Assembly (NCBI GenBank): GCA_024275575.1
Contig: JAJRYV010000007.1
Coordinates: forward strand, 1-40,961
DNA length: 40,961 bases
Direction of reading: 5' to 3'
DNA from: a bacterium
GTDB lineage: Bacteria > Zhuqueibacterota > Zhuqueibacteria > Zhuqueibacterales > Geothermadaptataceae
Position numbers and translations under genes: made by a program. Positions 109 through 40,961 of the stretch are shown here, piece after piece. Position 1 is the stretch's first letter, and every line of letters starts with the position of its first letter. The notes under the pieces were generated by a model. It was not told where the DNA came from and ran no database searches. It saw only the letters and a program-made list of their open reading frames with translations.

Positions 109-1430
109 GCAATAAAGGCTTGCTCTCCGCGCTGTGTCGCTTCCTGCAGGTGGGCGATATGCGATTTGGGTAATGCTTTACCATTGCTTTGCTTTTTTTC
201 GAATGCGTGAAGATAATTTTTAACGTTTGAGAAATTGTGCATCTCGTCAGGAATTTCTGAAATTGCATAAGGACGATTGATGATAGACTTGCCACCAATT
301 ATAAACTGTAGGCGCAGAACCTCGAGTTCGCCGGTCATGCCGCTTTTGGCGATGTGAAAATCGATCCACGATGTTTCCTTCTGCGCTTTCTTTTTTGCGT
401 TTGCACATAACGCTTCGGATAGTTGATACGCGCGATAAAACGGATATTTTGTTTTGACAATAGCAATGCCGGCTCAACAGCCCATTGTGCCGTATGCGTC
501 GTGTTCTGAATTTTCAAATGCTTTAACGTATTCTTCCGCCAGGAAAAAACTCAACCGGGCATCGCAGACGAAGGTGCAGTTATCGCCGCTTAGAACGATG
601 GGGCGAATCGGAATAAAACTCTTTCCAGATTTTGCATCCCGATTAAGTTTTATTGCTTTATTTTGTAACAAAACATCCATTTGTCCCCTTATTTTTTTAA
701 ACATAATCTGCATCGCATTTTCAGCGCGATTTGAAACAGCCATTGACAATTATCGCCAGTTTTCCAGGTTCTCTTGTTCAAGAAATCGATCTCCCATACC
801 GTTGCCATCGATATGCACAACGGCGATATGATTGTCTTCGCCTTTGTGCTGGCCTAATTGGTCGAGTTCCGATGTAAAAATATAGTCCTTTAGGTCAGGG
901 ATTTTGGAGATGTCGATTTTTTTAAAGCTTGTTTTCTTGCTGATACCTTTTCCCATTTTAGCCAGGACATTTGCAGAAACAAAATGAACACGATCTTCAG
1001 ACTCATCTTTCCATTCCACATCGCTGGAAAAATCGGTAAAATCACATTTTCGCGTGATGCCGTGGCGGGCTATCGTCGTGTTGGGCATAAAGCTGTTTTT
1101 CATTTGATCCAATTTTGCAAATATTTAATCGAAATCTTCTTTTCTAAATACTAAAAGGGCATTGCCCCCACCGATATAGGCAATCTCCACTTTCTGGTCT
1201 TTATTTTCATCCTTTTGAAGAGCCATTTGGCCGATTGTTGCTGGGGCTTTCCAGGCTTCCAGTATTGCTTTATCAACGCCAAACTGTTCTTTCAAGACGT
1301 TGAAAAGAAAATCATCATACATTTTCTCAACAAGCTCAGACGCGCCAATATTTGTGCGTAATTTATTACTGCTAAAAATGTAAGGTTGGATGGACATGCA
1401 GTCAAGCAAACAGAAATAATATTCACTCAT
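105..1430 (-). pseudogene. Stand-alone Cas10/Cmr2-like palm-domain protein, interrupted by three in-frame stops
   Basis: One continuous reading frame of 442 codons runs from ATG 1430 (ribosome site CAGGAGCACAAT) to TGA 105-107, with no frameshift. It is interrupted by TAA at 1125-1127, TAA at 750-752 and TGA at 474-476. The pieces join into a Cas10-like protein. The first part has the signature IQPYIFSSNKLRTNIGASEL, then YIGGGNALLVF, a first-palm-like strand. Next comes VVHIDGNGMGDRF, the metal-binding palm strand. Then IRPIVLSGDNCTFVC stands where active relatives have GGDD. Last is AGIAIVKTKYPFYRAYQL, the typical strand-helix after the palm. There is no HD domain and no cas gene or array nearby, so it belongs to the stand-alone Cas10-like group rather than a complete type III locus. 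The GGDD-to-SGDN change agrees with loss of nucleotide cyclase activity. Selenocysteine at the TGA is possible but does not explain the two TAA codons. Confidence 0.75.
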
Positions 1431-6845: not shown

Positions 6846-6892
6846 GCTTTCACATTAATTAACCTAATTCTTACACTCTCTTCAAATAAAAA

Positions 6893-6933
6893 AACGAGGC
6901 TTCACAAGGTTTAGTGAAACGTCGTTTTTTTTT
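6893..6933 (+). terminator. Imperfect hairpin plus T-run after the NtrC-type regulator
   Basis: Arms AACGAGGCTTCAC and GTGAAACGTCGTT pair with a short internal mismatch and an 8-base loop, followed by nine Ts. The form fits an intrinsic terminator. A near copy occurs at 40314-40354 in front of the second cytochrome gene, so this hairpin is also the first part of a duplicated upstream module. Confidence 0.65.
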
Positions 6934-7214
6934 GCCGGATTCAATCCGTATATTCTCTTTTGCCGGCAATATTCTCATCTTATCAGATTTCTGTTTTTAA
7001 ACAGGTTGTCGTAACCTTTTCAGGGGATTTACCACTATGCAAACGTTGTGAAATTTCTGACGTTTTCCATGGTGTATCACGTTATTTGACGATTAATTAT
7101 ACTTATGGCCTTAATGATGGACAAAAGGAGGTGTGTGGAAAAGAAAAAATCCGTGCCTGTGTTGAACTATTCCCATTAATCCATAATTTTAAAATAATTA
7201 AGGTGGATATTAAA
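6934..7214 (+). promoter_or_regulatory. Long leader of the octahaem cytochrome gene, copy A of a duplicated module
   Basis: This stretch is collinear with 40355-40637. The distance from GCCG after the hairpin to the GGAGG box is 193 bases here and 192 there, and from GGAGG to the cytochrome ATG it is 88 and 91. Shared blocks are the one after the T-run (GATTCAATCCGTATATT here), ACGATTAATTATACTTATGG (one T shorter in copy B), AAAGGAGGTGTGTGGAA, AAAATCCGTGC and AAGGTGGA just before the start. The AT-rich block is promoter-like, but no standard -35 box sits at the right distance. The GGAGG box is far too distant (88 bases) to serve the cytochrome ATG, so it serves a micro-ORF or forms part of an RNA structure. 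Confidence 0.6.
7135..7179 (+). CDS. Possible 14-codon leader peptide (micro-ORF), copy A
   Basis: GTG 7135 follows AAAGGAGGTGT and reads VEKKKSVPVLNYSH before TAA 7177-7179. Copy B at 40555 has the same length, the same stop position and the peptide VEEQKSVLVLNSSN. Against a coding role, the gap from GGAGG to GTG is only 3 bases, and the differences between copies do not favour third codon positions. The same bases can form a 7-pair stem (GTGTGGA with TCCGTGC) in which a U-G pair here becomes C-G in copy B. Either a leader peptide or a structured RNA is possible. Confidence 0.3.
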   Translation: MEKKKSVPVLNYSH

Positions 7215-9173
7215 ATGGAAAAAAAAGGTTACTACGTTTTATTAGTCCTCGCTATTTGTATCCTCGTTGCCGTTCCAGGCAATCTGTTTGGGCAAACCTA
7301 TGTTGGCCCGGAAAAATGTTTGCAGTGCCACAATAATGCCGGCCTTGGCGATATGACTGGCTGGCGCACGTCTTTGCATGCGAATGGTTATTCTTCCCAG
7401 TTAGATGACTCCCATACGATGCAAAACCTCACGGGTGTTATCAATGATTATGATCAAAACGGTATCGATGATTTTCATGACGGGCTCGATTTTAACACCA
7501 TCGACAGTGCTTTCGACCCCTTCAAACCCAATGCGCCAATTTTAGCTTATTCTGACTCTACCGGTTATACGATCACCATTGGTAATGCCACACACCGTGT
7601 ATATTTGACCTACGGCGGCAGTGGTTTGTACAAGCAACGTTACATTGTAAAAATCAAAACATCCGAAGGAGAATCCAAAGATCATTATATTGCCCCGGTG
7701 CAATATAATGAGAAGACTCGTGAGTATGTGCTTTATCATACCAATGCCTGGTACGATGCCAATAACGATCCTATCGACTACAGCACTCTGGCAGAGGCCG
7801 CGACTAACAATCGCAGTATGGCAAAAGGCTGTTCCGGCTGTCACGTAACCGGGCTGACGGTAGAGCAAGATGCAAACGGCGAATGGATTCAGCACGGCGA
7901 AAGCCCGGTAGACGAAGCGCTTTATGCCAGCTATAACAATGTTTACGATCTCGATGGCGATGGAGATCTGGACCTGATGAACACAACCTGTGAAACCTGC
8001 CACGGCCCTGGCAGTGATCACGCATCGACCGGCGACAAAACAAAAATCATTAACCCTGAAGATTTAACCGCAGAGCAGGCAAACAACCTTTGCGGTATGT
8101 GCCATTCACGCGGGAAAAGTTTGCCGAATGGTACGCTCTCTTATCCCTATGATGATGCCAATATGACCGGTTGGTCCATCGGTGATCTGGTCGCAGATTA
8201 CTATAGCGACGGCGGCGGCAACTGGCCTGATGGAAAATCTTCAGTCAAACACCATCAGCAGTTTTTTGATCTGTATGAAAGCAGCAAACCAACTTTCCAA
8301 TTTCATAATGTGACCTGTTTCGAATGCCATAACGTGCATAATACGGAAAAGCACCATATCCGCCGTCAGGTTATGGAAGAAGATTCGACCGGTGCGCCAA
8401 TCGCCATCGCGACTGATAACGACGATAACACCCTCTGCCTCTCCTGCCATGCCACCCATGGTGATTTTGCAGATATCCCGGTTGAATGGGTTGCTGATTA
8501 TGCCAATCATGTTGCTGATATTGCCCCGATCGTTTCGGCACACACGAACCACTCCTATGACCCAACCGGAACCGGTGCAAGTCGTTGTTCAAAATGCCAC
8601 ATGCCTAAAATCGCCAAATCCGCAGTGCCGTACGATATCCATGCCCACACATTTATGGTTCTTTCTCCGGAGTTGACGACGTTTTATCAGCCTGAAGGCG
8701 GCATGCCGAATTCATGTGCCGCAAGCTGCCATATTAAAGCCGGTTATCCCAACCTGGGGGTTGATGTCGGCAGTGATGTCCTGAGTTCATGGGATGAACC
8801 ATCCGATATTGCCCTGGCCGATACTTTAATGCATTATTATGGTCCGGGTGGAATCTGGTGGGATACCGGTGCGCCGTTGGCCGTTGTCTCCCGCGATGCC
8901 GGGCTGCCGGCAACCTATGCGCTGGAGCAAAACTATCCCAATCCGTTTAATCCATCCACAACCATTGCATTCAACCTGGCTGATGCCGGTTTTGTCAAAC
9001 TGAATGTCTATAATATTTTAGGGCAGAAAGTTGAAACCTTGGTTGACAAAATGGTGATGGCCGGTTCATACAAAGTCCAATTTGAAGGAACCGGGCTGGC
9101 CTCAGGCGTTTATGTCTATCGTTTGCAAGTCAATGGTATCGTTCAGGTAAAGAAAATGTTGCTCACCAAATAA
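7215..9173 (+). CDS. Secreted octahaem c-type cytochrome with type IX sorting domain
   Basis: A 652-residue protein starting at ATG 7215, with AAGGTGG eight bases upstream and a signal peptide ending near FGQ-TYVG. It has seven CxxCH haem sites (35-39, 206-210, 259-263, 293-297, 368-372, 408-412, 458-462) and an eighth site of CxxxCH form (CAASCH, 501-506). About 165 residues without haem motifs separate haems 1 and 2. The C-terminal 85 residues form a Por/type IX sorting domain (ALEQNYPNPFNPSTTI to the terminal KKMLLTK). That domain predicts passage through the outer membrane by T9SS and release or attachment outside. A role in extracellular or periplasmic electron transfer is likely. A catalytic role such as nitrite or hydroxylamine chemistry cannot be excluded. 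It follows the NtrC-type regulator and shares its upstream module with the cytochrome at 40638. Confidence 0.92.
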   Translation: MEKKGYYVLLVLAICILVAVPGNLFGQTYVGPEKCLQCHNNAGLGDMTGWRTSLHANGYSSQLDDSHTMQNLTGVINDYDQNGIDDFHDGLDFNTIDSAFDPFKPNAPILAYSDSTGYTITIGNATHRVYLTYGGSGLYKQRYIVKIKTSEGESKDHYIAPVQYNEKTREYVLYHTNAWYDANNDPIDYSTLAEAATNNRSMAKGCSGCHVTGLTVEQDANGEWIQHGESPVDEALYASYNNVYDLDGDGDLDLMNTTCETCHGPGSDHASTGDKTKIINPEDLTAEQANNLCGMCHSRGKSLPNGTLSYPYDDANMTGWSIGDLVADYYSDGGGNWPDGKSSVKHHQQFFDLYESSKPTFQFHNVTCFECHNVHNTEKHHIRRQVMEEDSTGAPIAIATDNDDNTLCLSCHATHGDFADIPVEWVADYANHVADIAPIVSAHTNHSYDPTGTGASRCSKCHMPKIAKSAVPYDIHAHTFMVLSPELTTFYQPEGGMPNSCAASCHIKAGYPNLGVDVGSDVLSSWDEPSDIALADTLMHYYGPGGIWWDTGAPLAVVSRDAGLPATYALEQNYPNPFNPSTTIAFNLADAGFVKLNVYNILGQKVETLVDKMVMAGSYKVQFEGTGLASGVYVYRLQVNGIVQVKKMLLTK

Positions 9174-9216
9174 TGAGTCGTTTTTTGCCGAAGACAGGGT
9201 AAATGAGTTGTAATTA

Positions 9217-9252
9217 AAAAAAAGGGATGGTTTAATAAACCATCCCTTTTTT
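9217..9252. terminator. Strong bidirectional terminator after the octahaem cytochrome
   Basis: A near-perfect 16-bp stem, AAAAAAGGGATGGTTT with AAACCATCCCTTTTTT, encloses a 3-base loop. T-runs follow it on both strands, so it should stop the cytochrome transcript and also minus-strand reading from the peptidase genes. Confidence 0.9.
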
Positions 9253-9269
9253 ATTGCCATATTCCAGTT

Positions 9270-23803: not shown

Positions 23804-24286
23804 TCAAACAAATGTTTTTAAAATATCAATTTGCAGGCCTTGCAGCTCATCGTAGGCTTTGTTGATCTCGCTGATTTTTTCCTGCAGGCGCTGCATTAAT
23901 TTTTTCTTTTCCAGGCCGTTGCGCACGATGAGGCGAATGTCCTCATTATCCCAGGGTTTTTCGATATACTGGAATAAGCCCACCTCATTAATGGCTTTGA
24001 TAGCATTTTCTTTATCCGCATATCCGGTGAGAATGATACGCGGAACTTCCGGTTTGAGCTCGCGCACCTTTGTCAGAAAAGTAATGCCGTCCATTTCCGG
24101 CATCAAATAATCAGAGATGACCAGGTCGACATCATTTTTTTCAATGAATTTGAGCGCTTCGGCCGCCCGCGTAAAAACTTCGATGCGATAATCGGTTTCC
24201 AGCATAAAAAATGAGCTCAGGCTGGTCAGTACCATTTCTTCATCGTCGACCAATACGATGGTCTCATGTTGTGTATCATTTTGCAT
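23804..24286 (-). CDS. Response regulator receiver protein with C-terminal coiled coil
   Basis: A 160-residue protein from ATG 24286 (CAGGAGATACGG in front). The receiver domain has VLVDDEEMV (acidic pair), the phospho-acceptor in LVISDYLMPEMDG, RIILTGYADKENA and the lysine in QYIEKPWDN. A short coiled coil (KKKLMQRLQEKISEINKAYDE) follows and there is no output domain. It overlaps the upstream REC-PP2C gene by 11 bp. Its receiver is very close to that protein's receiver, for example GLFQYIEKPWDN in both, which suggests a local duplication. Confidence 0.9.
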   Translation of the reverse strand: MQNDTQHETIVLVDDEEMVLTSLSSFFMLETDYRIEVFTRAAEALKFIEKNDVDLVISDYLMPEMDGITFLTKVRELKPEVPRIILTGYADKENAIKAINEVGLFQYIEKPWDNEDIRLIVRNGLEKKKLMQRLQEKISEINKAYDELQGLQIDILKTFV

Positions 24287-25517
24287 CCGTATCTCCTGAA
24301 TTCGATTTTCGCCCAATGCCCAAAAGAGTGATATCGTCTCTGCTTGTATTTAGACTTTTATGGGTCGTTAATATATTCGTTATTTTTTTAAAAATCACAC
24401 CGGTTGGCAAATGCAGATTTTCCTGCATGATTTCATACATCGCTTCATCGCCGAACTGTATGCCTTTTTCAAGGGCATATTCAACGATGCCGTCGGTGTA
24501 GGTGATCAGGCAATCGCCGGGCTGCAGGTTTAATTGCATCTCGTCACCGGGAAAATATTCATTTTCTTCCATCAATCCGAGCAGCAGTCCATCAGCGGGC
24601 AGCAACTCGATCGATTGCCGCGTGCGTGAAATCACTACCGGATGCGGGATGCCGGCATTCAGCAGACGGCAATCTCCCTTGCGCAGATCAAGCCCGACGA
24701 GCAACGCAGAAACGAAAACACCGTCGGGCAGGCTTTTGGCTAAAAACGCATTCATGCCGTAGAGTATTTCAGAAAAAGGCGTCGCCGTGCCGATAAAAGT
24801 GTCCACTGATAACTTCAGCAAGATGGTGATCAGCGCGGCCTGAATACCGTGGCCGGTAATGTCGGCCAGCAGGATGGCATATTTTTCATCCTTCAGCGGA
24901 ATGACCGTATAGAAATCACCACCGATTTCCATCGCCGGCAGATATTCGAGAGTGAATTCGAAAATGTCATTTTCGGGAAAAGTCTGCGGCAGCATACGCG
25001 ATTGCAGATCACGCGCGAGCTGCAACTCTGCTTTGAAGCGGTTCTGCGCCCGTGCCAGGGCGTCGACACGCTGTTTTGCCAGGTTGAGATCACGTATTTT
25101 TTTGCGCAGCGTCCGGTTGAGCGCACTGTTGGCGATGCCGTTGCGCAAGACCATGATCAACTGGTCGTTATCCCAGGGTTTCTCGATATATTGAAAAAGG
25201 CCGACTTTGTTAATGCCCTTGATGGCATTCTCTTTGTCAGCGTAGCCGGTGAGCAAAATGCGCGGTACTTCCGGAGCCAGCGCTTTAACGCTCTGCAGAA
25301 ATTGCAGCCCGTCCATTTCCGGCATATAAAAATCAGAAACGATAACATCGAAGTTTTTTTGTTTCACCGCGGCGAGTGCTTCATGTGGCTTTTGAAAGGT
25401 TTCAACCTGGTAACCGGTCTCCAGTTCCACGACCATGCGCAAGCTGTCCGTCACCATTTTCTCATCATCAAGAATGAGGATTGCAGGACGGTTTTTGTTC
25501 TTATCGTCGCCGCTCAT
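24276..25517 (-). CDS. Response regulator with PP2C-type (SpoIIE/RsbU-like) phosphatase output
   Basis: A 413-residue protein. The N-terminal receiver (1-125) has phospho-acceptor Asp in VIVSDFYMPEMDG. A coiled-coil linker follows (125-175, ending ELQLARDLQSRMLP, the usual lead into RsbU-type domains). The PP2C domain (185-400) has metal motifs MEIGGDFYTV, LLADITGHGIQAAL and ITYTDGIVE with SRDDITLLGIG. Such proteins dephosphorylate anti-anti-sigma factors when their receiver is phosphorylated. No STAS or RsbW partner lies in the window. Its start overlaps the upstream kinase by 4 bp, so the kinase probably phosphorylates it. Confidence 0.93.
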   Translation of the reverse strand: MSGDDKNKNRPAILILDDEKMVTDSLRMVVELETGYQVETFQKPHEALAAVKQKNFDVIVSDFYMPEMDGLQFLQSVKALAPEVPRILLTGYADKENAIKGINKVGLFQYIEKPWDNDQLIMVLRNGIANSALNRTLRKKIRDLNLAKQRVDALARAQNRFKAELQLARDLQSRMLPQTFPENDIFEFTLEYLPAMEIGGDFYTVIPLKDEKYAILLADITGHGIQAALITILLKLSVDTFIGTATPFSEILYGMNAFLAKSLPDGVFVSALLVGLDLRKGDCRLLNAGIPHPVVISRTRQSIELLPADGLLLGLMEENEYFPGDEMQLNLQPGDCLITYTDGIVEYALEKGIQFGDEAMYEIMQENLHLPTGVIFKKITNILTTHKSLNTSRDDITLLGIGRKSNSGDTDAK

Positions 25518-28482: not shown

Positions 28483-31308
28483 TCAGATTTCCTGTGAATG
28501 GTTTTGCAGCGCCAGGCGGGCGGACTGGGCGATTTTTAAATCTTTGTGACCGGTAAAATTTTGTACCAAAACTGTATCAAAATTGATTCCGCTGCAAGCC
28601 AGCCAGTGCAGTGTGCAGCTTTTCAGCCAGTTATCATTACCGGTTAATATTTTATGATAACAATTTTGTTTGCTAATTCCGGTATTTTTTATCGTCAACC
28701 GCAGTTTTTCGATTGCCGGCGCTTCGAGAACCTGGATGATGAAACTTTTTAAATCAGGCTCGAGAACGTTTTCGAGATATTCGATCGCGTTGGCCCGTAC
28801 GTCAGTCTGACCGCCGTAGATGGCTTTATAGGCATTGCGCAAGTCGGTGCCGGCCAATTTTGACAGCCCGAGAAAGCGGAAAATCCGTTTCATCGATTCT
28901 TCCATGCGCTCTTTCAGGGTTTTTTCCAATAAAGAAGCTGCCAGCACCGCGGCGGTCGAAAGGGGTGGTTTTCGTTTACCGGAGATAAATTCTTTGATGA
29001 CTTTTTTATGCATCCTGAAAAACAGAAAATTATTGAGATACGCCTGTTTTTCTTGTAAAATGTTTTGCTGCACTTGCCGCGGGTTAAATTTGAGCAACGG
29101 GAAACTCTCGTGCAACAGGCTCAGGGCTTTGACGATCTGCCGGCGCACCGGCTGATCGACTGCAGCAAGTGCCGCGAAAAGCACTTCGACGACATCCTGC
29201 GTTCCGATGAGCGCGAGAACCCGGGGAACGGCAATTTTGATCGCCGGGGAGACTGCGGGATTTTGCAGCGCTTCGGCGAGCAAGACAACACTGCTTTCGC
29301 CGCATTCAGCAAGCGCCTCTCGGGCATGTTTTCGCAGGCTTGGAATGTCGAGAAATTCGATCAATCTTTTGCTGAACGAGACTTCGCAGGCGCGGCCTGC
29401 AGCAGTAATCGCAGCAAGGCGCACATTGATTTCAGCATCGTCAAAAAAATGGTGCAGGATGGGGAAAAACAGCTGCAAGCGGGCCCGGCCGATGGCTTGC
29501 GCCAAATTGGCCTTGATATAAATTTCATCCGCCGGCGGATATGTTTTGGCTTGTAAGTTTTGCTGAATCTGCTTTATAATCGGTGAAATATCGAGTTTTT
29601 CCCGCAGCGAAGGATTTTGTGCCATTTGCATGGCAGCGCAAATGAGCGCCGAATTCCGGATTTTAAAATCATCCTGATACAGGGCTTTCTCCAGTGTTTC
29701 CACCGGGTTTAGAGAATGGGCGCACAAATGCTGCAGCGCCGCCGCCCGCACTTTATGCGATTCCGATTCCAGTAATGCCGTCGTCTCATACACCAGCTCA
29801 TTGTCATAATTTGAGATTACTGACAGCACCTTCACTTTAACTTCGTCGGAAGGGTGCAGAATCAGTTTGCGGAAATAGGGCAGAAAGCGAGCATTCTTAA
29901 CATTTTCCAGCAGGTCGAGGGCGTAAAGAATGCGCCGCTCGTTCCGACCGTCGAGCACTTTAATCATCGAGTCGATAACTGCGGCGTCATCGAGATTGAC
30001 CGTTTGCGTATCGAGATCGATGGAGCGTTTTTCGATGGCCGTGCGAAATGATTCGATGTATTCGGCTTTGAGCCGGCCGTTCAAATAGAGCCAGACCAGG
30101 ATTAGCAGGAGACTTAAAAGGCTGATGAATTCGATGTTTATTTTGAAAACAAGCGTAAGGACGAGCAGCAATAGGCCGCTGATCCCGGTTGACAGGTTGT
30201 CGATAAAGACATCGATAAAGGTTTTGACTTTATTTTTAACCGCCGCTGCGATTGGCAGGCTCACCAGCTCTAACCCGGCCTTGTTCACCGATTGTTTGAA
30301 CGCCCCCTCACTGACTTTCAAAAAGATACCCGCCCATAGCGCCGGGTAAAAAAGGATGAGCAACGAGCCCAGCAGAACACTTACGGGTAAAATAAACAGC
30401 GAAGCGCCAACACCGAAATATTTTAAAATACGGCCGGTAAATAATATCTGAATGAGCAATGAGATGATGCTTAAAGTTGAAAGCCAGAAACCGAAAAACG
30501 CTGTTAATTCATCTTTATTGTTCATCGTTTTTGCTGCGATGGCGTTGAATTGGTAATCGACGATGTTGGCGACGATGACGCTGATGCCGACGATTGCCGC
30601 AAAATAGCGCAGGTGTTTCGAGTTCAAAATAAGACTGAGTGCACTTTTCTCTGAGGTTTTCTGTTGCAATCGTTTCTGCTGCTGCATACGTTCGCGGTAA
30701 TTTTTTCGCGCACTTTTTTTCCAGACTATCTGGATAATCAGCATGCAGATGGCGATAAAAAATACGCAGACGAGGACCAGGTTGGCGGTACCGATGAGGG
30801 CGGCGAGATAATTCGTCAGGTAACCGCCGAGAATCCCTCCGGTAATCGCACCGGCACCGATGAAGCCGAAAAGCCGGCGCGCCTCACGGGCATCGAAAAC
30901 ATAATTGGCAAACAGCCAGAATTGCGAAGTGATGATCACCGCAAAAATTGCCACCCAGACATAAAAAAAATAGATAAACCAGGCAGCTTTGTAGGCAGTG
31001 GCAAGCAGAAACCAGAAACCGAGAAGCTGCAAAATTATCAGGCCAGTCGTGCTCAGGATCAACACATTCAGGCGGATTTTGTTGGCAAAACGGGAATAGA
31101 TGATAGTCACCAGCACGGCTGCAATCGCCACCAGTAGAAACGCGAACGGTAGTTGTTCGGCGCTAAAGCGGGTGAGAAAAAGCGAATTGCGCACCGGTTT
31201 GACGATGAGCAGCGAGGCGATCAGTAAGAAAATATAGAAAAACATGAGCAAGGCTCGCAGGCCCTCGCCTTCGCGAATATCGAAAAATCGACGTATTAAT
31301 CTGCGCAT
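28483..31308 (-). CDS. ATP/ADP translocase-like (NTT/Tlc) transporter fused to HEAT-like domain
   Basis: About 941 residues from ATG 31308, which begins MRRLIRRFFDIREGEGLRAL. GTG 31356 would add 16 residues, and neither has a clear ribosome site. Residues 1-430 contain about 12 transmembrane helices of the NTP/NDP-exchange (Tlc) family, for example IVKPVRNSLFLTRF and LFANYVFDAREARRLFGFIG. Residues 460-940 are cytoplasmic helical repeats resembling HEAT (KVKVLSVISNYDNELVYETT, VRAAALQHLCAHSL, VRLAAITAAGRACEV). The single-domain relatives move nucleotides in intracellular bacteria and plastids. Fused forms in free-living bacteria have unknown cargo. A cyclic-nucleotide-fold gene follows 2 bp later and a shorter paralogue lies upstream. 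Confidence 0.85.
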   Translation of the reverse strand: MRRLIRRFFDIREGEGLRALLMFFYIFLLIASLLIVKPVRNSLFLTRFSAEQLPFAFLLVAIAAVLVTIIYSRFANKIRLNVLILSTTGLIILQLLGFWFLLATAYKAAWFIYFFYVWVAIFAVIITSQFWLFANYVFDAREARRLFGFIGAGAITGGILGGYLTNYLAALIGTANLVLVCVFFIAICMLIIQIVWKKSARKNYRERMQQQKRLQQKTSEKSALSLILNSKHLRYFAAIVGISVIVANIVDYQFNAIAAKTMNNKDELTAFFGFWLSTLSIISLLIQILFTGRILKYFGVGASLFILPVSVLLGSLLILFYPALWAGIFLKVSEGAFKQSVNKAGLELVSLPIAAAVKNKVKTFIDVFIDNLSTGISGLLLLVLTLVFKINIEFISLLSLLLILVWLYLNGRLKAEYIESFRTAIEKRSIDLDTQTVNLDDAAVIDSMIKVLDGRNERRILYALDLLENVKNARFLPYFRKLILHPSDEVKVKVLSVISNYDNELVYETTALLESESHKVRAAALQHLCAHSLNPVETLEKALYQDDFKIRNSALICAAMQMAQNPSLREKLDISPIIKQIQQNLQAKTYPPADEIYIKANLAQAIGRARLQLFFPILHHFFDDAEINVRLAAITAAGRACEVSFSKRLIEFLDIPSLRKHAREALAECGESSVVLLAEALQNPAVSPAIKIAVPRVLALIGTQDVVEVLFAALAAVDQPVRRQIVKALSLLHESFPLLKFNPRQVQQNILQEKQAYLNNFLFFRMHKKVIKEFISGKRKPPLSTAAVLAASLLEKTLKERMEESMKRIFRFLGLSKLAGTDLRNAYKAIYGGQTDVRANAIEYLENVLEPDLKSFIIQVLEAPAIEKLRLTIKNTGISKQNCYHKILTGNDNWLKSCTLHWLACSGINFDTVLVQNFTGHKDLKIAQSARLALQNHSQEI

Positions 31309-31590
31309 AAATTGATAAAAAAAATGGTTGATTAACAGTGTCTGTTCAACGTACACAATTTTTACACATAGAGCGAAGCGATATCCTGTGCTTGCCGAAG
31401 GGGCGTCCTCGCCGAATGGCAGGAGCTCTACGCTCAGCGAGCATGCTTTCGTTGCTATTTATCGCGAGTGAAGTTGAACGAGATACGATTAGCAGGATTT
31501 AACTCGCTGCAAATTTAGTATTTAATTGGCAAAAATACAAGTGGTGCATGCAACGCACCATCTCGGGGAAATCGAAAGGAAAATTTGCGG

Positions 31591-32925
31591 TTATTTTGTG
31601 CGGCTATTATCTTTTTCAGCGACCAGCAGCTTATTTAACATGCCGATGCGGAATGCGACAAATATCCAAATGCAGACCAGTGCGAGATTAAAAATTGCAA
31701 AGTGCCGGGTTTCCAGCGCCAGCCAGTTGATGCCGGCATAGACAAGCACAGCCGAGAGAACGTCGCCGGCACGCTGAAAAAAAGTATCGATCGCCTGTTT
31801 CGCTTTGTATTTCTGCTCCCGCGTCGTGGGCAGAAAGAGTACGTGGCGCACGGTATTCTGTAATGAATAATCGGTGGCATTTTCCGCGGTTTTTGCCCAG
31901 CGTACGATACCGAGAACCGGAAAAAAGGCGAGAAAGAAATAACCGCCGAGAGCGATGAAAGGCAGGATCAAAATAGCGATACGAATGCCGAAATATTTCA
32001 GAATCCTCGAGACCAGGAAAAGCTGCACCAGCACGCCGACGATGTTGACCACCGTAAAAAAATCCGCATAGAATTGACCGATGTATTCTTTAACACTCAG
32101 GCCGAGTTCGGCGCCGCTTTGCGCCGCGTCGGCGGAGACGATTTTGCCGAGAAGATATTCACCGGTGCTGTTCACCCAGTTCAGGAGCAAGATCAAAATG
32201 CCGATGAGCAGCAGATAGCGGTTTTTTAAAATCAGACTGAAGGCCCCTTCGCCACTCAGGGCTTGTTCAGATTGCATAGACGCCTGAGACAGTTTCTCCT
32301 GGTTGTTTTTTTCGCGGCTTTCGACATAATTTGTGATCACTAAGGAGAGCAGCAGCAAAGCGGCCGCGACCAGCAAAAGTTGATAGATTCCCAGGGGTTT
32401 GATGAGCAACCCGGCAAAGTAACTGCCGAATACTGCGCCGGCCGAGGCGCCAAATGCGAAGATAGCAAACAGTCGTTTTCCGGCTGCGGGGGCATATAAA
32501 TCATTGGCAAACGCCCAGAATCGCGAAACGACCATCAAACTGAAAATGCCCACCCAGAGATAAAAAACAATACCGATGGGGACCTGTGCAAGTGCGAGCC
32601 CATAAAATAACAACAGACAAGTGGTGAAAAACAGCACGACGATGTTGATCAGTTTTTTGCGTGGGAATGTGTTCGCCAGCCAGTCATAAAGCCGTACGGC
32701 GCCGATGAGCAAAATCGCCTGGCCTGCCGCCGAATAACTTTTTATCTCTGCGCCACCGCCGGCGAGAATCAGGGGTTCGCGCACGACTTTGGCGATATAA
32801 TAGGATGTTAAGATGAGAAATATATTAAACGTCAGTAGTACGACCGTGGCGCCCTCACCGGCGCGTGTTTCCGCAAATAAGTTGAGAAAGCGGTCAAGGA
32901 GATTCGGAGACTGGGTTTTGCTCAT
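31591..32925 (-). CDS. ATP/ADP translocase-like (NTT/Tlc) membrane transporter, short paralogue
   Basis: A 444-residue protein with about 12 transmembrane helices and no soluble extension. It shares motifs with the larger neighbour: AETRAGEGATVVLLTFNIF against the REGEGLRALLMFF start, RFWAFANDLYAPAAGKRLFA against FWLFANYVFDAREARRLFG, and RILKYFGIRIAILILPFIAL against RILKYFGVGASLFILPVSVL. The two are paralogues. Conserved LPTTREQKYKAKQAIDTF and REPLILAGGG are family features. Nucleotide exchange is possible, but a different metabolite is equally likely in a free-living cell. A terminator lies just before its start. Confidence 0.87.
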   Translation of the reverse strand: MSKTQSPNLLDRFLNLFAETRAGEGATVVLLTFNIFLILTSYYIAKVVREPLILAGGGAEIKSYSAAGQAILLIGAVRLYDWLANTFPRKKLINIVVLFFTTCLLLFYGLALAQVPIGIVFYLWVGIFSLMVVSRFWAFANDLYAPAAGKRLFAIFAFGASAGAVFGSYFAGLLIKPLGIYQLLLVAAALLLLSLVITNYVESREKNNQEKLSQASMQSEQALSGEGAFSLILKNRYLLLIGILILLLNWVNSTGEYLLGKIVSADAAQSGAELGLSVKEYIGQFYADFFTVVNIVGVLVQLFLVSRILKYFGIRIAILILPFIALGGYFFLAFFPVLGIVRWAKTAENATDYSLQNTVRHVLFLPTTREQKYKAKQAIDTFFQRAGDVLSAVLVYAGINWLALETRHFAIFNLALVCIWIFVAFRIGMLNKLLVAEKDNSRTK

Positions 32926-39883: not shown

Positions 39884-40313
39884 AACCGCACTCGGGTTTT
39901 CTCCCCGGGTGCAATGCTGACAGCAACCGGCATATGCCGCAAGCAATTCAAGAATGAATTTGCCGCGACTTCAGAAATGATTCCCGGCATCTCATTTTAT
40001 AAACCCGTCTTAAAAAGACACCGGTACAGCTTCCCATATTTCTCGCCTTGCCCGGCCGCATTGCCGGTTTTCAGCTCAATTTTTTAATTGCAGCGATGGC
40101 CGCTCTGTCGCAGGCTTTTCCGCTGATTTCAGAGTTTCCGTCTACAAAATACATTGCTGTCAGGTCTTCGATCAATTGCCTTGAGTCGTATGGGCTCAAT
40201 CGCCGCCCCGGCAAAGACTTACCGGGTTTCAAAAACCATATCGCCCCGGACGCCCTCGCATGTTACCTTTTCTCTATTAAAATGTTTAATTTTTACACGC
40301 GCTTTATTAAAAA
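39884..40313. other. Intergenic region without a recognisable gene
   Basis: About 430 bp after the haem-binding gene. AAAACC-GCACTCG-GGTTTT at 39884-39900 may be a weak terminator. An open frame at 40048-40335 has no ribosome site, an odd composition and runs into the conserved hairpin, so I do not call it a gene. Confidence 0.4.
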
Positions 40314-40354
40314 AACGAGATTTCACGAATTTTAGCGAAACGTCGTTTTTTTTT
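40314..40354 (+). terminator. Imperfect hairpin plus T-run, second copy
   Basis: Arms AACGAGATTTCAC and GCGAAACGTCGTT with an 8-base loop are followed by nine Ts, matching 6893-6933 in form and sequence. No gene ends just upstream, so its role here may be part of the conserved upstream module rather than termination of a neighbour. Confidence 0.55.
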
Positions 40355-40637
40355 GCCGAATTCAATCTGTATATTTCCTCTCATTTTCAAATTCATCATC
40401 TTACTATCGCTATATTTTTTAATAATTTAGAAGATAGGTTGCAGCAGTTTTTTTATTGTGTAAAAGCGGTGAATTTTCTGGCATTTTTTTTGAGACATCC
40501 CATAGCTTAACGATTAATATACTTATGGTTTTGAAAAGTGATGAAAGGAGGTGCGTGGAAGAACAAAAATCCGTGCTTGTGCTGAACAGTTCAAATTAAC
40601 AGTTGTTATTCATGATCCTTTTAAGGTGGAAATTGAA
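40355..40637 (+). promoter_or_regulatory. Long leader of the second multihaem cytochrome, copy B of the duplicated module
   Basis: Collinear with 6934-7214, sharing the block after the T-run, ACGATTAATATACTTATGG, AAAGGAGGTGCGTGGAA, AAAATCCGTGC and AAGGTGGA before the ATG. The middle 90 bases are less alike and more AT-rich here. A stretch TGGCATTTTTTTTGAG at about 40480 resembles a sigma-54 promoter but is not conserved in copy A, so I give it little weight. Confidence 0.6.
40555..40599 (+). CDS. Possible 14-codon leader peptide (micro-ORF), copy B
   Basis: GTG 40555 after AAAGGAGGTGC reads VEEQKSVLVLNSSN before TAA 40597-40599. Length and stop position equal those of copy A at 7135. The same bases can pair as GCGTGGA with TCCGTGC, so an RNA hairpin is the competing explanation. 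Confidence 0.3.
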   Translation: MEEQKSVLVLNSSN

Positions 40638-40961
40638 ATGAAGAAAAAATGGTACACAATTATTTTGGTAACTGCAGCCTGTCTTTGGGTTGCCATGCCG
40701 GTCAGTGTGTCCGCACAAACTTATGTAGGCTCCGGCGCCTGTCAGACCTGCCACCCGGCTCAGGCGGCAGACTGGGCTGACTCCGGCCACCCGTATAAAT
40801 TCTCGGTGATCGAGAATGATCAGGCTCCCACTTATCCCGACATGGTTGTCAATTTTCAGGATAGCTGGCTGGCCGGTCTCGGCGATGGTTCCCATACGTG
40901 GAGTGATATCGCCGGCGTCATCGGCGGTTTCGGCTGGAAAGCCCGTTTCGTCGGCACCGAT
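40638..40961 (+). CDS. Secreted multihaem c-type cytochrome, N-terminal part
   Basis: The 108 visible codons start at ATG 40638, eight bases after AAGGTGG, and run off the right edge. A signal peptide (KKKWYTIILVTAACLWVAM) ends near VSAQ-TYVG. The first haem site is ACQTCHP (about residues 34-40), followed by DWADSGHPYKF, whose His could be a distal ligand. The stretch IGGFGWKARFVGTD is typical of FCB-group multihaem cytochromes. The TYVG start and the upstream module match the octahaem cytochrome at 7215, so the two probably share regulation. The number of haems and the C-terminal sorting signal lie outside the window. Confidence 0.85.
   Translation, partial: MKKKWYTIILVTAACLWVAMPVSVSAQTYVGSGACQTCHPAQAADWADSGHPYKFSVIENDQAPTYPDMVVNFQDSWLAGLGDGSHTWSDIAGVIGGFGWKARFVGTD

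What the first reader, a model, noticed from the sequence alone, without database searches (positions are those of the whole stretch)
6893..7214. Duplicated upstream module of about 320 bp before two multihaem cytochrome genes
Both copies are collinear within one to three bases (193 vs 192, then 88 vs 91). They share a hairpin with T-run, an AT-rich block, the AAAGGAGGTG box and AAGGTGG before the start. The genes upstream are unrelated, so selection or module transfer rather than plain tandem duplication is suggested. I know no RNA family with this layout.
Basis: seen in the sequence. Interest (0 to 1): 0.7.

Follow-up and report, generated by a model that had tools for sequence, protein, structure and literature searches.

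The report
Ribosome-binding box before exported-protein genes
A block of about 460 bases, copied in front of two different secreted cytochrome genes in a KSB1 bacterium, carries a near-perfect docking site for the small ribosomal subunit about 90 bases before the real start codon, and similar sites sit mostly in front of exported-protein genes in related bacteria, which hints at an unstudied way of protecting or loading these messages.

Summary
Window 6850-7310 and about 40270-40733 share terminator hairpin, leader, ribosome-binding site and signal-peptide start (68% over 348 nt, E 8e-29). These are the only two copies in the genome. Gene 2 is a cytochrome of a different family whose leader and signal-peptide region resemble gene 1's, so the 5' module was probably captured. 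The genus-mate ortholog of gene 1 keeps mainly hairpin, AAAGGAGGT box and ribosome-binding site.

No structured RNA or leader peptide is supported. The AAAGGAGGTG box complements the 16S rRNA tail and lies 91-94 nt before the ATG. Such distal boxes recur across the class, the phylum and beyond. Of 96 collected leaders, 84 precede signal-peptide genes, against 41 of 114 background genes with a strong proximal Shine-Dalgarno (p 6e-15). Boxes match the 16S tail by a median of 12 nt, proximal sites by 6-8. Start codons or open frames after the box are not above chance.

Best reading: a non-initiating, distal 30S-binding element that stabilises or pre-loads mRNAs of exported proteins. It works like the Bacillus STAB-SD. 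RNase J, which that mechanism needs, was not found; RNase E/G is present. The mechanism is inferred. The link is to export, not to cytochromes.

The parts
6888..6934 (+). Copy 1: terminator-like hairpin with A-run and T-run, after the response-regulator gene (ends 6845)
   Evidence: Folds at -16.2 kcal/mol, z -4.1; stem conserved in copy 2 and in the G001 ortholog
6935..7123 (+). Copy 1: weakly conserved AT-rich stretch with a shared ATTAATTATACTTATGG block (7092-7108; possible -10 TATACT at 7098-7103)
   Evidence: Alignment; the promoter scan reports no sigma-70 match at that hexamer on the + strand, so the promoter is a guess
7124..7133 (+). Copy 1: distal box AAAGGAGGTG, complement of the 16S 3' tail, 91 nt before the ATG
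   Evidence: Identical in copy 2; AAAGGAGGT in the G001 ortholog; class-wide element
7133..7156 (+). Copy 1: possible small hairpin just after the box (GTGTGGA ... TCCGTGC)
   Evidence: 7 pairs incl. G-U in both copies, 4 of 5 central pairs in G001; weak, three sequences only
7200..7206 (+). Copy 1: proximal Shine-Dalgarno AAGGTGG of gene 1
   Evidence: 8 nt before ATG 7215; conserved in copy 2 and G001
7215..9173 (+). Gene 1: secreted multihaem cytochrome c, 652 aa, 7 CXXCH, type IX sorting tail
   Evidence: Por_Secre_tail and cytochrome c families; ortholog 77% in G001
40306..40354 (+). Copy 2: terminator-like hairpin, about 425 nt after the nearest upstream gene end (39883)
   Evidence: Folds at -13.0 kcal/mol, z -2.8
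40544..40553 (+). Copy 2: distal box AAAGGAGGTG, 94 nt before the ATG
40623..40629 (+). Copy 2: proximal Shine-Dalgarno AAGGTGG of gene 2
40638..40961 (+). Gene 2: secreted multihaem cytochrome of another family, cut by the contig end (517 aa, 8 CXXCH when joined to contig C111)

Best explanation
The region is a portable 5' gene module: terminator, promoter and long leader, ribosome-binding site and signal-peptide codons. It was copied from the conserved gene 1 locus to the front of a cytochrome gene of another family. Its key conserved part is a distal box that can pair with about 10-13 nt of the 16S rRNA 3' tail but is not used to start translation. Most likely a 30S subunit docks at this box near the 5' end of the mRNA. 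There it blocks 5'-end-dependent decay (RNase E/G in these bacteria) and/or serves as a loading site for the proximal Shine-Dalgarno about 70 nt downstream. This would give long-lived, strongly translated mRNAs for abundant exported proteins. Shown by sequence: the duplication and its limits, conservation of the box at the orthologous position, complementarity to the 16S tail, no excess of start codons or open frames after it, and the link to exported-protein genes. Inferred: that the box is transcribed near the 5' end, that 30S binds it, and that it stabilises or loads the mRNA.
For: Duplication. Gene 2's mature part is another family, DNA similarity ends in the signal-peptide region. Box, hairpin and RBS kept in the G001 ortholog; box before the homologous gene in G007. 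Distal box 45-75 nt before a proximal SD: 54 listed places in 194 genomes, reversed pattern 0; at 150-180 nt only 12 in 189 genomes. 84 of 96 leaders precede signal-peptide genes against 41 of 114, p 6e-15; 31 of 41 protein families, p 2e-5. Bases outside the search pattern extend the 16S match; median match 12 nt distal, 6-8 proximal. Start codon 4-12 nt after the box in 19 of 96, about 40 of 96 in control intervals; open frames as in shuffles. 16S tail GGATCACCTCCTTTC in same-family genomes. RNase E/G present.
Against: No transcript data: neither the 5' end nor 30S binding is shown, and no -10 signal lies at a fixed distance from the box. RNase J, the nuclease blocked by the known STAB-SD, was not found over the cut-off in 81 phylum genomes. 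The 62% ortholog in G004 has no box. Start-codon depletion is not significant when counted per protein family. The box is predicted partly paired in leader folds (mean unpaired probability 0.36). In the own genome the box is rare: 7 AAAGGAGGTG in all, below the reversed control of 15.
Confidence: 0.5

Rival explanations
1. The distal box is the ribosome-binding site of a short upstream frame (leader peptide or reinitiation), which controls the cytochrome gene.
For: A perfect SD normally serves a start codon; 17 of 96 leaders have ATG directly at +10; leader peptides with reinitiation are widespread in bacteria (PMC4833913). In copies 1 and 2 the frame KGGxWKxKNPCLC-stop is shared, read from the sequence.
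Against: 19 of 96 boxes have any start codon at 4-12 nt, fewer than in control intervals; open frames are no longer than in shuffled spacers, 0.667 against 0.637. Copy 1 has no ATG in the shared frame and the G001 ortholog does not keep it.
Confidence: 0.12
2. Standby loading only: 30S binds the distal box and moves to the proximal site, with no effect on mRNA decay.
For: Narrow distance range of 67-105 nt (partly set by the search), AT-rich spacer with 37% GC, a proximal SD in every collected leader (required by the search).
Against: Cannot be told apart from stabilisation by sequence. Leaders are not more structured around the RBS than shuffles (z -0.11), so the need for a standby site is not evident.
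Confidence: 0.2
3. Structured regulatory RNA (riboswitch-like leader) in front of cytochromes.
For: Hairpin conserved; a small hairpin after the box keeps 4 of 5 central pairs in three sequences; box-to-+50 folds are slightly better than shuffles across 96 leaders (mean z -0.42).
Against: No Rfam match. Copy 1 and copy 2 leaders fold no better than shuffles (z 0.4 and 2.2). The stable hairpin is a plain terminator. Most of the leader is not conserved in the ortholog.
Confidence: 0.06
4. Ordinary ancient gene duplication: the shared DNA only reflects descent, the box is a chance purine run, and exported genes simply have longer leaders.
For: Both genes are multihaem cytochromes with sorting tails; secreted genes with strong SDs are common (41 of 114).
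Against: The mature proteins are of different families while the leaders align at 68%. The box is retained in the ortholog where the flanks are not. Against genes with equally strong proximal SDs the association stays at p 6e-15, and 2e-5 per family.
Confidence: 0.12
5. The box is a DNA-level control site (promoter or activator site), for example for the adjacent NtrC-type regulator.
For: A PhnD-like protein, a histidine kinase and an NtrC-type regulator lie next to gene 1; the kinase and regulator genes are syntenic in the genus-mate.
Against: No sigma-54 -24/-12 motif in the three modules. The box consensus is the 16S complement, including positions outside the search pattern, which a DNA-binding site would not need.
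Confidence: 0.05

Closest known systems
STAB-SD of Bacillus (cry3A leader; Agaisse and Lereclus 1996, described in PMC4113751)
   Same: Non-initiating, strong SD-like sequence in a long leader, about 100 nt or more before the start, with a separate proximal ribosome-binding site; extensive complementarity to the 16S tail
   Different: Known from Gram-positive bacteria, where 30S blocks RNase J1; here RNase J was not found and RNase E/G is present. Here it is linked to exported proteins across FCB-type bacteria. Stabilisation is not shown.
Ribosome standby sites (de Smit and van Duin 2003)
   Same: 30S binding site upstream of the actual ribosome-binding site
   Different: Standby sites are usually unstructured stretches beside a structured RBS (own knowledge); here a full SD-type sequence and an RBS that is not unusually structured
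Leader-peptide reinitiation elements (PMC4833913)
   Same: SD-bearing leader upstream of a gene
   Different: No conserved or over-long frame after the box
Intrinsic terminator
   Same: The upstream hairpin with T-run in both copies
   Different: In copy 2 it lies about 425 nt after the nearest gene end, which fits a part carried along with the copied block

Membership tests
STAB-SD mRNA stabiliser | SD-like sequence complementary to the 16S 3' end, in the leader, apart from the gene's own RBS | tested here: met
   10-nt box in copies 1 and 2, median 12 nt in 96 leaders; 16S tail in same-family genomes (no match in the own assembly); own RBS AAGGTGG present
STAB-SD mRNA stabiliser | Does not direct translation initiation | tested here: met
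   By sequence only: start codons not enriched after the box, frames as in shuffles
STAB-SD mRNA stabiliser | Lies close to the 5' end of the (processed) mRNA | not testable with these tools
   No transcript data; no fixed-distance -10 signal
STAB-SD mRNA stabiliser | Protects against the 5'-3' exonuclease RNase J1 | tested here: not met
   TIGR00649 over the cut-off in 0 of 81 phylum genomes; RNase E/G present in 15 of 16
STAB-SD mRNA stabiliser | Increases mRNA half-life | not testable with these tools
   Needs a half-life measurement
Leader peptide / uORF | Start codon at proper spacing and conserved short frame | tested here: not met
Structured regulatory RNA (riboswitch and the like) | Conserved fold or match to a known family | tested here: not met
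Ribosome standby site | 30S loads upstream and moves to the RBS | not testable with these tools
   Needs toeprinting and reporters

The most novel reading that the evidence does not exclude
KSB1 and related bacteria that lack RNase J use a distal, non-initiating, full-length anti-Shine-Dalgarno complement as a dedicated leader element for exported-protein mRNAs, and this element travels with signal-peptide codons as a portable expression cassette.
Probability: 0.35. Interest if true: 0.75.

Novelty: new variant of a known kind. Interest (0 to 1): 0.58.

Why it matters
SD-like sequences far from start codons are usually ignored. If these boxes hold 30S subunits without starting translation, they show a stabilising or loading device outside the Gram-positive RNase J context and linked to protein export. 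That can be tested with simple reporters, gives an annotation cue for surface proteins, and shows that a leader plus signal peptide can be captured as one unit by a cytochrome gene of another family.

Tried and rejected
Long exact pattern in 99 relatives: only the two window copies. Rfam: nothing. RNA fold of the leaders: no stability, so a covariance model was not built. N-terminal extension of gene 1 through the open frame from 6960: rejected, because copy 2 has in-frame TGA TGA just before the box and the ortholog has an in-frame stop after it (sequence). Sigma-54 promoter: none. Fixed-distance -10 signal: none. A first matched background set was too small (9 genes, 5 with signal peptide) and was replaced by 114 genes. 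The earlier background of 17/102 is not used for the main claim, since 41/114 is stricter. A scan of about 400 kb of G021 showed that boxes are rare. Literature searches for KSB1 plus Shine-Dalgarno and for tandem Shine-Dalgarno found nothing; most subscription papers are not in that library.

Full report
WHAT IS THERE. The window is a whole contig (C28) of a 4.96-Mb genome assembly. A genome of the same family, G004, carries the gene 1 ortholog on a 5,476-base contig that appears in the named collection as a candidate division KSB1 bacterium (L134). Window 6850-7310 and about 40270-40733 are two diverged copies of one module. BLAST within the genome gives 68% over 348 nt, E 8e-29, and no third copy. 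The alignment score is 166 against at most 31 in 500 shuffles. Order of parts: terminator-like hairpin, about 190 nt of weakly conserved AT-rich DNA, AAAGGAGGTG box, about 65 nt, AAGGTGG ribosome-binding site, ATG, signal peptide. Identity in 40-column windows peaks at the hairpin (0.85-0.9), at the box (0.85) and at the ribosome-binding site (0.73). It drops to background about 95 nt into the coding sequence.

THE GENES. Gene 1 (7215-9173) is a 652-aa multihaem cytochrome with a type IX sorting tail. Gene 2 is cut by the contig end. Joined through a 120-bp overlap with contig C111 it has 517 aa, 8 CXXCH and a C-terminal YPNPFN-type sorting region. Gene 2 is 36.6% identical over 528 aa to a protein of a class-level relative. 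It matches gene 1 only at 28% over the rest, but at 49% over the first 39 residues. So the 5' module and the mature protein of gene 2 appear to have different histories. The genus-mate G001 has the same order of kinase gene, response-regulator gene, hairpin, leader and gene 1. It has no close gene 2. Copy 2 also carries the terminator about 425 nt away from the nearest gene end. The copy therefore most likely went from the gene 1 locus to gene 2, after the split from G001 (inference).

WHAT IS CONSERVED. In the G001 ortholog most of the leader is barely alignable, but the hairpin, AAAGGAGGT and the ribosome-binding site remain in place. In G007, another family of the order, the homologous gene has AAAGGAGGTGACG 103 nt before its ATG. 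The 62% ortholog in G004 has no box.

THE BOX IS GENERAL. A search of 62 genomes for AAAGGAGG, 55-85 nt, AGGNGG, ATG found just the two window copies in the own genome and just the ortholog in G001. It also found many hits elsewhere in the class that precede signal-peptide genes. With the pattern AAAGGAGGTG, 45-75 nt, AAGGAGG, ATG, 194 genomes gave 54 listed places by my count, 17 of them outside the phylum; the reversed pattern gave none. The same pattern with a 150-180 nt gap gave 12 in 189 genomes. I collected 96 such leaders from the fetched loci; 84 precede a protein with an N-terminal signal by a crude rule. Most of the other 12 are also exported or membrane proteins, among them a Tat-type protein, flagellin, FlgD, a pilin-like protein and a permease. 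Three are ribosome hibernation factors and one is an acetyl-CoA synthase subunit. Background in about 1.2 Mb of sampled contigs: 106 of 412 genes with at least 110 nt of free upstream DNA have such a signal, and 41 of 114 with a strong proximal SD and no distal box. The difference has p 6e-15. After collapsing to 41 protein families it is 31 of 41, p 2e-5. Families include TonB-type outer-membrane proteins, type IX-secreted proteins, FadL-type porins, solute-binding proteins and cytochromes. Only a few are multihaem cytochromes, so the element is not cytochrome-specific.

THE BOX IS AN ANTI-SD COMPLEMENT AND NOT A START SITE. Bases not fixed by the search extend the match to the 16S tail: G at -1 (56%), A at +10 (79%), T at +11 (47%). 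The distal match has a median of 12 nt, against 6-8 for the proximal site of the same genes. TGA follows the core in 74 of 96 distal and 1 of 96 proximal sites; the T and G of the distal sites were largely fixed by the search, the A was not. The tail GGATCACCTCCTTTC is present in 22 of 81 genomes, including same-family ones; the own assembly has no match, perhaps because the rRNA gene is missing from it. Only 19 of 96 boxes have any start codon 4-12 nt downstream, fewer than in control intervals. That depletion is not significant per family, but an enrichment, as expected for start sites, is absent. Frames after the box are no longer than in shuffled spacers.

MECHANISM. Established knowledge: in Bacillus, a non-initiating SD near the mRNA 5' end (STAB-SD) binds 30S and blocks RNase J1 (PMC4113751). 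Strong SDs without start codons are a common feature of stabilising leaders (PMC3997798). Here RNase J was not found over the curated cut-off in 81 phylum genomes, while RNase E/G is present. I therefore do not file this as a STAB-SD. I propose that it works like one, shielding the 5' end from RNase E/G, or that it loads 30S for the proximal site. Which of the two applies, and whether either does, is not shown.

LIMITS. Signal peptides were called by hydropathy and charge. The 96 leaders come from pattern hits and include related genomes. Several sampled background contigs were chosen because they hold a known box. There are no expression data.

Noticed in passing
G000:C112:17797 (L288, position 1501): Another intergenic AAAGGAGGTGA in the own genome, 242 nt before a signal-peptide gene, with a GC-rich hairpin in between.
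   Followed up: partly
L239:938-1261, L240:1176-1499, L107:6507-6851: Three ribosome hibernation factor genes (Ribosomal_S30AE) in different genomes also carry the distal box; a link between the box and slow-growth expression is possible.
   Followed up: no
G135 (five loci, e.g. L116, L283, L284): One genome outside the phylum has five paralogous leaders of the form AAAGGAGGTGATAGTT...TTAATTGTTTTTT; the three fetched ones precede outer-membrane-type genes.
   Followed up: no
L058, L084, L068: Some leaders hold two distal boxes about 45-100 nt apart before the same gene.
   Followed up: no
window 28483-32925: Two adjacent TLC-type ATP/ADP transporter-like proteins, one fused to HEAT repeats, a family best known from intracellular bacteria.
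   Followed up: no
window 474-1430 (- strand): Three short neighbouring frames that look like one broken gene; one holds an HIDGNGMG motif reminiscent of Cas10-type proteins; no Pfam match for the two pieces tested.
   Followed up: no
window 9211-9253: A strong hairpin with A-run and T-run just after gene 1, probably its terminator.
   Followed up: no
window 40842-40961 and G000:C111:9450-9569: The contig ends overlap by 120 bp, so C28 and C111 are neighbours in the genome.
   Followed up: yes
window 23915-25363: Two paralogous response-regulator genes in a row, receiver domains about 75% alike in DNA.
   Followed up: no
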